Shown: positions 34,700 to 63,510 of the stretch, in pieces
Layout: every line of letters starts with the position of its first letter
Numbering within the stretch: the stretch's first letter is position 1
Origin: Brachyspira suanatina
GTDB taxonomy: Bacteria > Spirochaetota > Brachyspiria > Brachyspirales > Brachyspiraceae
DNA: 64,000 bases
Direction: 5' to 3'
Assembly (NCBI RefSeq): GCF_001049755.1
Contig: NZ_CVLB01000001.1
Coordinates: forward strand, 248,001 to 312,000
Notes under the pieces: generated by a model
Database searches by the model: none
What the model saw: only the letters and a program-made list of their open reading frames with translations
Told to the model about the DNA's origin: nothing
Program-made: the position numbers and the translations under genes

Positions 34700-35000
34700 A
34701 AAATACTGAAAATTTTTAAGTTTGTCAACTGATGTACTTTATATAGAATTATCTACTTTTTTGTCGCCACGCTTTGAGAAAACGTAATTGCTAGAACTTT
34801 ATATTAAATATATACTTATTAAATATAGGATATAACCTAAATTTAGACTAAAAATATAGTTCTTCGCCGTAGGCGTACTTCGTATGGTTCTTTTATATCA
34901 ATAAAAGAACTTGGGGTGTGGGGGCTAGTCCCCACAAATAATAAAAATATAAAAATAAAAAAATAATTTTTGACAAAATATAGTTGTTTAGGTATATATT
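34700..35000. repeat. Right flanking repeat with hairpins
   Basis: Diverged direct copy of the left flank (31255-31640). Contains CTTTTTTGTCGC, CGCC-GTA-GGCG (34867-34876), a long stem GTTCTTTTAT/ATAAAAGAAC (about 34890-34913), GTGGGG/CCCCAC (about 34918-34935) and the promoter-like TTGACA (34970-34975)-17-TATATA (34993-34998). Noncoding; no frame of note on either strand. Confidence 0.6.
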
Positions 35001-35137: not shown

Positions 35138-35465
35138 AACGCACGGTGAATTAGCTTTTATCTATAAATTCATTATATTTTTTATTTTGTATATTTTATA
35201 AATAAAATTCTTCGTGCGTTGTGTAAGCAATAAATTTAAATAACTCTAGGGTGGGCATTAGAAATAACAGTGTAGAGCTAAAAATAAAAATAATATAAAA
35301 ATTGCAGATTAAAGTTATAATTCTAGAGGGTGGGGAGTGAAAATAGGTTTTAAAACTTAATTACATACCCCGCCCTTTATTCTTTATTACTTTATTAAAA
35401 AATTTAACTTTAATTATATTTATAGCCTACTTAGAAATTTCAGCACCCGCCCAAGCTTTTATTAG
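35138..35465. repeat. Dispersed nested inverted-repeat element, locus 1 (rearranged halves)
   Basis: Core AACGCACGGTGA (35138-35149) with CGTGCGTT (35213-35220), then right-arm boxes AGGGTGGG (35248-35255) and AGGGTGGGG (35327-35335), then left-arm boxes CCCCGCCCT (35368-35376) and CACCCGCCCAAG (35444-35455). Box-to-box distances are 79 and 76 bases, as at the other two loci. The order core-right-right-left-left suggests two half elements side by side. No coding frame. It ends 26 bases from the radical SAM gene stop. Confidence 0.7.
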
Positions 35466-35490
35466 ATTTTGAATTTTATTTAATTAGAAT

Positions 35491-42802: not shown

Positions 42803-42864
42803 AATTATAAAACAAAAGTATTTTAGAAAAATGATATTAAATATTTGTTTTTTTGATTTATTTT

Positions 42865-43185
42865 TCAGTCCCGCCCTCTAGGCTTTTTAAATTTACATGT
42901 TATTTTTGTATTATATTTCTTTTTATTTTAATCTGTGATTATAGCACCCACCCAAAATTTTATTAGTATTTATAATCTCCTAACCGCACGCAGAGCGGCA
43001 CTATAAATATAAGCTGATTAATAATTGCACTTAATTAATATATATAATATGCATTAAACGTGCGTTAAAAAGATAGAAAATTTAATTAAAACTTGGGTGG
43101 GTGCTATATATTCTGATTTCGTTTATAAGAAATTATTAGTTAAAATTGCATATAAATTTAATAAGGAAAAAGGGTGGGCATATGT
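42865..43185. repeat. Dispersed nested inverted-repeat element, locus 2 (complete)
   Basis: Left boxes CCCGCCCT (42870-42877) and ATAGCACCCACCCAA (42941-42955); core AACCGCACG (42982-42990) and AACGTGCGTT (43057-43066); right boxes TTGGGTGGGTGCTAT (43093-43107) and AGGGTGGG (43171-43178). The inner boxes are a perfect 15-bp inverted repeat. Box spacings are about 74 and 78 bases. Noncoding on both strands. The rest of the 42803-43489 gap holds the candidate small RNA. Confidence 0.75.
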
Positions 43186-43225
43186 AATTAGTAATAAAAA
43201 ATATAGTTTTTTGTATTTTTCAGTA

Positions 43226-43253
43226 TTGACAAAGTTTTAAAATATGTTAGAAT
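43226..43253 (+). promoter_or_regulatory. Promoter of the candidate small RNA
   Basis: TTGACA (43226-43231), 16-base spacer, TAGAAT (43248-43253). Next coding start on this strand is 237 bases on, with a terminator between. Confidence 0.55.
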
Positions 43254-43259
43254 ATACTA

Positions 43260-43384
43260 ACAAATGTTAGAGAGCATTGATAAAGTCAACAACTTTGTAT
43301 CCCTAAATTGATACAATATATTTTATAACCTTCATTTAATTAAACTGTACGCCCCCTATGATGAGTAGGGGGCAATATTTTTTT
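43260..43384 (+). ncRNA. Candidate small RNA or attenuated leader, about 125 nt
   Basis: Bounded by a promoter (43226-43253) and a strong intrinsic terminator: GCCCCCTA (43351-43358), 7-base loop, TAGGGGGC (43366-43373), then AATATTTTTTT. No start codon with a Shine-Dalgarno lies within. The body includes GTCAACAACTTTGTATCC and a repeated ACTAACAAATGTTAG motif near its start that can form a small hairpin. It may be a free small RNA or a leader that attenuates the DUF486 gene 105 bases downstream. I match it to no known RNA family. Confidence 0.5.
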
Positions 43385-43489
43385 ATTAAATATAGAAAAT
43401 AAATATAGCAAATTCTTTTTTATAACATATAATATTTTATCAATAAAAAAAATTTTATAGATAAACAAATGGAGGATTAAAATATTATT

Positions 43490-43858
43490 ATGAAAGCTAT
43501 AACAACTATAGTATTGCTTATATTGTCAAATACATTTATGACAATAGCTTGGTATGGACATTTGAAATTCAGCGAGATGAAAGGTTTTGCTAAGTTATCA
43601 CTTCCTATAATTATATTAATAAGCTGGGGAATTGCTTTATTTGAATATTGTTTTCAGGTTCCAGCAAATAGAATAGGATTCCAAGGAAATGGAGGACCTT
43701 TTTCATTAATGCAGCTTAAAGTTATGCAGGAAGTTATTACATTAACTATATTCACTATTTTTACAGTGGTATTTTTCAAAACAGAAACTTTAAGAATAAA
43801 TCATTTTATAGGTTTTTTATGTTTGATATTGGCAGTATTTTTTATTTTTAAGAAATAG
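43490..43858 (+). CDS. DUF486 family membrane protein
   Basis: 122 residues with four membrane helices (TIVLLILSNTFMTIAWYGHL; LSLPIIILISWGIALFEYCF; VITLTIFTIFTVVFFK; HFIGFLCLILAVFFIFKK). The central motif EYCFQVPANRIGFQGNGGPF is the hallmark of the DUF486 family, a small relative of drug/metabolite transporters; transport role unproven. A strong GGAGGA precedes the ATG. It stands alone, convergent with the SurA-like gene. Confidence 0.88.
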   Translation: MKAITTIVLLILSNTFMTIAWYGHLKFSEMKGFAKLSLPIIILISWGIALFEYCFQVPANRIGFQGNGGPFSLMQLKVMQEVITLTIFTIFTVVFFKTETLRINHFIGFLCLILAVFFIFKK

Positions 43859-63168: not shown

Positions 63169-63177
63169 ATTTATTTT

Positions 63178-63500
63178 CATTCCCCGCCCTTTATATTTAC
63201 TGCTCTATTTTTAATATTAGTTTTTCTATTTTTTATTGTTTAATTCAGATATTACAGTATCCCACCCAAGCGGAGTGTAGATTTTTTGTCTATTCAACGC
63301 ACGGTGAGTTAAGCTAAAACTTTAAATCAAGTTATAAATACAATTTTTATTATATTATAAATTTTGCTAACCATGCGGTGAGAAATATAATAAATCTAAT
63401 CAAAGCTAGGGTGGGGTATGCTCTTTCTTATTTGGACTTGTATATGATTATAGATTGTAATTTAAAGTTGATATCAAATTTAATGGGTGGGGTATGTAAT
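63178..63500. repeat. Dispersed nested inverted-repeat element, locus 3
   Basis: Left boxes CCCCGCCCT (63182-63190) and CCCACCCAAG (63261-63270); core AACGCACGGTGA (63296-63307) and AACCATGCGGTGA (63369-63381); right boxes AGGGTGGGG (63408-63416) and TGGGTGGGG (63484-63492). Spacings of 79 and 76 bases agree with loci 1 and 2. Noncoding; fills the gap between the efp unit and the peptide-binding protein gene. Confidence 0.75.
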
Positions 63501-63510
63501 TGATTTTAAC

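What the first reader, a model, noticed from the sequence alone, without database searches (positions are those of the whole stretch)
42865..43185. Dispersed intergenic element with constant box spacing but free intervening sequence
Three loci (35138-35465, 42865-43185, 63178-63500) carry C-rich boxes on the left and G-rich boxes on the right of a CGCACGGTGA or CGTGCG core. Consecutive boxes on each side are 74-79 bases apart at all loci, although the AT-rich text between them is not conserved. At locus 2 the inner boxes form a perfect 15-bp inverted repeat about 137 bases apart. Locus 1 is two halves joined back to back. Conservation of boxes and spacing alone suggests a protein-binding array (about seven helical turns), a large RNA fold, or ends of a non-autonomous mobile unit.
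Basis: seen in the sequence. Interest (0 to 1): 0.72.

Follow-up and report, generated by a model that had tools for sequence, protein, structure and literature searches.

The report
Origin-centred, conserved spaced-box arrays in Brachyspira
About a hundred gaps between genes in this intestinal spirochaete carry the same pattern of short GC-rich boxes at fixed distances; selection keeps the boxes intact, and the arrays cluster around the inferred replication origin and vanish at the far side of the chromosome, as if an unknown protein reads them to organise the chromosome.

Summary
The window lies in a Brachyspira genome. About 119 intergenic arrays (at least 150 half-units) share one layout: C1-78-C2-37-k-75-k'-35-G1-78-G2-42-C1..., with C=CCCRCCC, G=GGGYGGG and k/k'=CGCACG/CGTGCG. 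It is an alternating inverted repeat of ~345 bp period. Of 124 same-strand GGGNGGG pairs closer than 300 bp, 120 are 74-82 bp apart. The family is confined to Brachyspira (1 of 104 spirochaete genera; 23 of 26 genomes). In vertically inherited arrays, 1.9% of box G/C positions differ against 31% of linker G/C positions, so boxes are under strong purifying selection where they stand. The two halves of an array pair worse than re-partnered halves, which argues against a selected RNA or cruciform hairpin. Arrays centre on the GC-skew replication origin in B. intermedia (mean 24 kb away) and in a second, rearranged genome, and are absent around the terminus, beyond what intergenic length explains. 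No Y1/RAYT transposase exists in the genus. Best explanation: sequence-specific protein-binding arrays marking the origin-proximal chromosome, working like Noc/SlmA sites. The protein is unknown. Genes are gained or lost beside arrays through direct array duplications.

The parts
42857..43190 (.). Locus 2: complete array of type C C k k' G G
   Evidence: Model hits G000:C1:290857-290996(-) and 291052-291190(+), E 8.5e-23 and 2.7e-22
42870..42876 (-). box C1 (CCCGCCC)
42947..42953 (-). box C2 (CCCACCC), inside 16-bp arm 42940-42955
42985..42990 (-). box k (CGCACG)
43059..43064 (+). box k' (CGTGCG) in a near-palindrome TTAAACGTGCGTTAA
   Evidence: consensus
43095..43101 (+). box G1 (GGGTGGG), inside 16-bp arm 43093-43108
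43172..43178 (+). box G2 (GGGTGGG)
35138..35482 (.). Locus 1: array of type k k' G G C C
   Evidence: boxes; model hits G000:C1:283206-283345(+), 283357-283480(-)
35140..35145 (-). box k (CGCACG)
35213..35218 (+). box k' (CGTGCG)
35249..35255 (+). box G1
35328..35334 (+). box G2
35369..35375 (-). box C1 (CCCGCCC)
35446..35452 (-). box C2 (CCCGCCC)
63170..63501 (.). Locus 3: complete array of type C C k k' G G
   Evidence: left half G000:C1:311170-311311(-); right half nhmmer E 2e-11
63183..63189 (-). box C1
63261..63267 (-). box C2
63298..63303 (-). box k (CGCACG)
63372..63377 (+). box k', mutated (CATGCG); GTGCG in the nine orthologues with an unbroken array
63409..63415 (+). box G1
63485..63491 (+). 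box G2

Best explanation
The arrays are double-stranded DNA recognition sites for one or more sequence-specific proteins of Brachyspira that are not yet identified. The protein reads GGGYGGG (through the guanines, tolerating T or C in the middle) and CGTGCG at fixed distances and builds a phased nucleoprotein complex over ~330 bp of AT-rich, probably wrapped or bent DNA. About 100 such complexes mark the origin-proximal part of the chromosome and leave the terminus free. By analogy with Noc and SlmA sites this would couple nucleoid position to division or segregation, or organise an origin domain. Shown here: the layout, fixed spacing, purifying selection on boxes at fixed sites, lack of selection for pairing, and origin-centred, terminus-free distribution. 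Inferred: that a protein does the reading, and the cellular role.
For: Box G/C positions differ 1.9% (G boxes, n=797) and 1.3% (k, n=303) between orthologous arrays, against 30.8% for linker G/C positions (n=1443) and 20.6% for flank G/C (p~1e-75); the middle Y flips T/C freely (29%) but is A or G in only 9 of 310 GGGNGGG. Spacing 77.5+/-1.1, 74.8+/-1.1, 35.4+/-0.7 bp. Array density per intergenic kb falls 0.66 -> 0.27 -> 0.29 -> 0.00 with distance from the skew origin in B. intermedia; mean array position is 24 kb from the start of the chromosome file, R=0.63, Rayleigh p~6e-18; that file starts at the skew origin (PMC3163572; same length). In G010, with its file starting at dnaA, the mean is 1.655 Mb, R=0.71, and skew changes sign at 1.52-1.66 Mb. 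A second dispersed repeat is not origin-centred (R=0.22, p=0.43). Arrays are intergenic, 97/117 next to at least one gene 3' end, only 20 divergent, so not promoter operators. All 16 arrays with both flanks syntenic are kept between G000 and G009.
Against: No binding protein is known or proposed from data. The origin is inferred from GC skew, not mapped, and dnaA lies elsewhere. In G011 (B. pilosicoli) the bias is weak (R=0.33, p=0.025). Three Brachyspira genomes have no arrays, so the function is dispensable or replaced there. Origin-proximal DNA is also less gene-dense, and accessory-gene content was not controlled for.
Confidence: 0.5

Rival explanations
1. BIME-like DNA elements that bind a topoisomerase or nucleoid protein and absorb supercoils at gene 3' ends, with no origin-marking role; the origin gradient follows supercoiling or expression.
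For: Alternating inverted units, intergenic, enriched between convergent genes (49 of 117) and 3' of genes, like REP/BIME (PMC3733652).
Against: Complete absence near the terminus, where convergent gene pairs are expected too; boxes 75-78 bp apart are unlike 20-40 bp REP palindromes; no RAYT.
Confidence: 0.17
2. A non-autonomous mobile element family (MITE-like): each half is an end with three recombinase-binding boxes; conservation reflects selection for mobility.
For: Sites with and without the array between the same flanking genes: locus 3 absent in G002, G008, G010, G019, G021; locus 2 absent in G022, G018. Two distinct half classes, tending to one of each per array (PC1 anticorrelation r=-0.58), like left and right ends.
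Against: Resident copies are constrained at boxes after fixation; no array was gained or lost among 16 syntenic sites between G000 and G009; local duplicates only in direct orientation (10/57 direct, 0/56 inverted above 75% identity); no autonomous partner recognised.
Confidence: 0.15
3. Recombination sites or portable homology for gene cassette gain and loss.
For: G009 carries a ~1.3-kb gene segment flanked by 250-bp direct duplicates of C C k k' where G007 has one array; G007 carries a HicB/HicA module flanked by a direct copy of k' G G (84%) where G009 has one array; direct array duplicates flank genes at several G000 loci.
Against: Explained equally by ordinary homologous recombination between repeats; most arrays do not move; no integrase tested; does not explain the origin gradient.
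Confidence: 0.1
4. A structured RNA (or extruded cruciform) in which C boxes pair with G boxes and k with k'.
For: Loci 2 and 3 fold with z=-5.4 and -4.9; partner middle bases are T/C in 71% of box pairs against 48.5% in shuffles, compatible with G.U pairs.
Against: Linker pairing within arrays is 0.634 against 0.656 for re-partnered halves, 300/300 shuffles higher; no strand A-skew tied to polarity; polarity unrelated to the direction of flanking genes; no Rfam match. The T/C opposition follows from the two half classes.
Confidence: 0.08

Closest known systems
Noc binding sites (Bacillus) and SlmA binding sites (E. coli)
   Same: Dozens of dispersed sequence-specific sites, under-represented in the terminus region (PMC4726725); SlmA sites more abundant near the origin (PMC4117426 abstract).
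   Different: Noc sites are single 14-bp palindromes and SlmA sites single palindromes; here six boxes over ~330 bp with fixed spacing. No homologous protein was tested.
REP/BIME elements (E. coli, Pseudomonas)
   Same: Intergenic, alternating inverted units, 3' of genes and between convergent genes, high copy number.
   Different: Half-units of ~143 bp or more against 20-40 bp; no Y1/RAYT transposase in any of 26 genomes; no selection for palindromic pairing; origin-centred.
MITEs / miniature inverted-repeat elements
   Same: Short, non-coding, inverted ends, sites with and without the element.
   Different: Boxes stay under strong selection at fixed sites; spacer sequence diverges to ~58% identity; no recognised transposase; direct-only local duplication.
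parS / KOPS-type chromosome architecture motifs (from memory)
   Same: Short motifs with chromosome-wide skewed distribution; the k' box TTNNCGTGCGNNAA is a near-palindrome of parS-like length.
   Different: Different sequence and multi-box array; copy number far above usual parS numbers.

Membership tests
REP/BIME with RAYT | Y1 (HUH) tyrosine transposase of the RAYT kind in the genome | tested here: not met
   PF01797: 0 of 26 Brachyspira genomes; 5 of 14 control genomes ring
REP/BIME with RAYT | 20-40 bp palindromic units (PMC3733652) | tested here: not met
   Half-unit model 143 positions, three boxes, array period ~345 bp
REP/BIME with RAYT | Extragenic, mostly convergent or unidirectional gene context | tested here: met
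   49 convergent, 48 co-directional, 20 divergent; 5/119 overlap an ORF
MITE | Presence/absence of the element at otherwise orthologous sites | tested here: met
   Loci 2 and 3
MITE | Target-site duplication | tested here: inconclusive
   Sites without the array are too diverged to define the junction
MITE | Neutral decay of resident copies | tested here: not met
   Boxes constrained at orthologous sites
Noc/SlmA-type binding sites | Depleted around the terminus, denser near the origin | tested here: met
   Two genomes; weaker in G011
Noc/SlmA-type binding sites | Bound by a ParB- or TetR-family division regulator | not testable with these tools
   Needs binding experiments
Structured non-coding RNA | Compensatory pairing between the halves | tested here: not met
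   Less pairing than re-partnered halves
Structured non-coding RNA | Match to a described RNA family | tested here: not met
Integron attC cassette array | IntI integrase and attC R/L boxes | not tested
   Considered because genes lie between arrays

The most novel reading that the evidence does not exclude
A spirochaete-specific chromosome-organising system: an unknown Brachyspira protein assembles on ~100 phased multi-box arrays that define an origin-centred macrodomain, replacing the sites known from other bacteria.
Probability: 0.35. Interest if true: 0.87.

Novelty: new variant of a known kind. Interest (0 to 1): 0.74.

Why it matters
It is an abundant, selected, genus-wide element for which my literature searches found no description. 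If the origin-domain reading holds, Brachyspira, whose GC-skew origin is not linked to dnaA, gains a concrete handle on how its chromosome is organised and segregated: the DNA sites are in hand and the protein can be fished out with them. The arrays are also places where genes are gained and lost in a genus that includes livestock pathogens.

Tried and rejected
RNA hairpin/cruciform: pairing test negative, strand-skew test negative, intra-k' hairpin arms do not covary. Polarity set by flanking transcription: no correlation among co-directional flanks; by replication strand: both signs occur within single skew regions (not formally tested). Decayed protein gene: single-base indels between copies and almost no ORF overlap. 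RAYT mobilisation: no PF01797. Plasmid origin: no plasmid record covers 80% of the query. Intergenic length as cause of the origin bias: density per intergenic kb still falls to zero. G-quadruplexes (GGGYGGG twice per half) were considered; they do not explain the fixed 77-bp spacing or the k boxes.

Full report
OBSERVATION. The three loci exist as described. Searching the window's own genome (3.26 Mb, 34 contigs) with the two-G-box pattern gave 42 exact T/T places and 113 with Y in the middle. A sequence-only profile of the half-unit built from 42 copies found at least 150 half-units, the scoring cap. I fetched 60 stretches holding them (573 kb) and found 198 half-units in 119 arrays with nhmmer. 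Every box order is a piece of one alternating inverted repeat of ~345 bp period: C1 C2 k k' G1 G2 C1 C2 k k'. The commonest forms are C C k k' G G (37 arrays) and G G C C with k k' outside (31); 45 are single halves. Counting every GGGNGGG in those stretches, 120 of 124 same-strand pairs closer than 300 bp are 74-82 bp apart, and 94 of 99 k-k' pairs are 72-79 bp apart. The stretches were chosen for holding the element, so counts per genome are not unbiased.

ORGANISM AND RANGE. One genome of the genus (G009) has a chromosome of exactly the published length of B. intermedia PWS/A (3,304,788 bp; PMC3163572), so the genus is Brachyspira. 23 of 26 genomes of the genus carry the element; G001, G003 and G020 do not. 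In 198 Spirochaetota genomes of 104 genera only this genus has it, with stricter filters.

SELECTION. I aligned 40 orthologous array pairs among G000, G007 and G009. Where the source base is G or C, the orthologue differs at 1.9% of G-box, 1.3% of k, 30.8% of linker and 20.6% of flank positions. Counting also the 29 box positions already mutated in the source, about 5% of box positions differ. The middle base of GGGYGGG flips between T and C at 29% but is A or G in only 9 of 310. This is purifying selection on resident copies; a dead mobile element would not show it.

NOT A SELECTED HAIRPIN. Single copies fold well as RNA, as any inverted repeat does. If pairing were selected, the two halves of one array should match each other better than halves from different arrays. 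They match worse. PCA of the linkers shows why: half-units fall in two classes, and the halves of one array tend to opposite classes (r=-0.58, n=59). This also accounts for the T/C opposition of partner boxes. No RNA sense strand is visible.

POSITION. The 16 arrays with both flanks syntenic between G000 and G009 are all kept. In B. intermedia, whose sequence file starts at the GC-skew origin, which is not linked to dnaA (PMC3163572), the arrays from the 150 best half-units average 24 kb from that point and are nearly absent from 1.4 to 2.2 Mb. My own samples put the plus-to-minus skew change, the terminus, at 1.70-1.85 Mb. In G011 (B. pilosicoli by length, from memory) the bias is weak. Density per intergenic kb in G009 falls from 0.66 to 0, and another dispersed repeat is not origin-centred (only 18 places).

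DYNAMICS. Locus 3 is filled in ten genomes and lacks the array between the same two genes in five others; locus 2 is filled in six and lacks it in two. Arrays therefore entered at different times. Near-identical half-units 0.7-5 kb apart are always in direct orientation (10/57 against 0/56 inverted), and genes usually lie between them. Two G007/G009 differences show a gene segment flanked by a direct copy of part of the array, one of them a HicB/HicA pair. Recombination at arrays explains this better than transposition.

MECHANISM. Fixed spacing, box-only constraint, indifference to pairing, avoidance of divergent promoters and an origin-centred distribution together point to protein-bound DNA with a chromosome-scale role. 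Two inverted junctions lie at about whole helical turns (k-k' centres 73.8 bp, about 7.0 turns; G2-C1 42.3 bp, about 4.0), which is suggestive only. The nearest working analogy is Noc and SlmA sites (PMC4726725). I do not file it as a member of that or any family. The protein, binding itself and any phenotype are untested.

CAVEATS. GC-skew origins are inferred. The Rayleigh statistic treats arrays as independent. Gene content near the origin could still contribute. Profile E-values are rough by the tool's own statement.

Noticed in passing
window 43215-43400 (+): A ~150-nt block right of locus 2, upstream of the DMT_6 gene at 43490, is nearly invariant in 8 genomes and ends in a GC hairpin that varies in sequence, followed by a T run: looks like an undescribed small RNA or leader; no Rfam hit at gathering threshold.
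   Followed up: partly
window 34910-34950: Second dispersed repeat (GGGGCTAGTCCCCACAAATAATA): 13 places in this genome, 18 in G009, 2 in G010; not origin-centred in G009.
   Followed up: partly
L374 1267-2625 (G011:C1:2494267-2495625): In G011 the C C k k' part is repeated in tandem six times at a ~233-bp period, all in one direction.
   Followed up: partly
L363 10692-11170 (G007): A HicB/HicA toxin-antitoxin pair sits between an array and a direct copy of its k' G G half.
   Followed up: yes
L234 / L255 (G025, locus 2 orthologue): The core of the locus 2 array is replaced by another sequence that includes the second dispersed repeat.
   Followed up: no
G009 (B. intermedia) chromosome: dnaA at 1.33 Mb lies far from the GC-skew origin, agreeing with PMC3163572.
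   Followed up: yes
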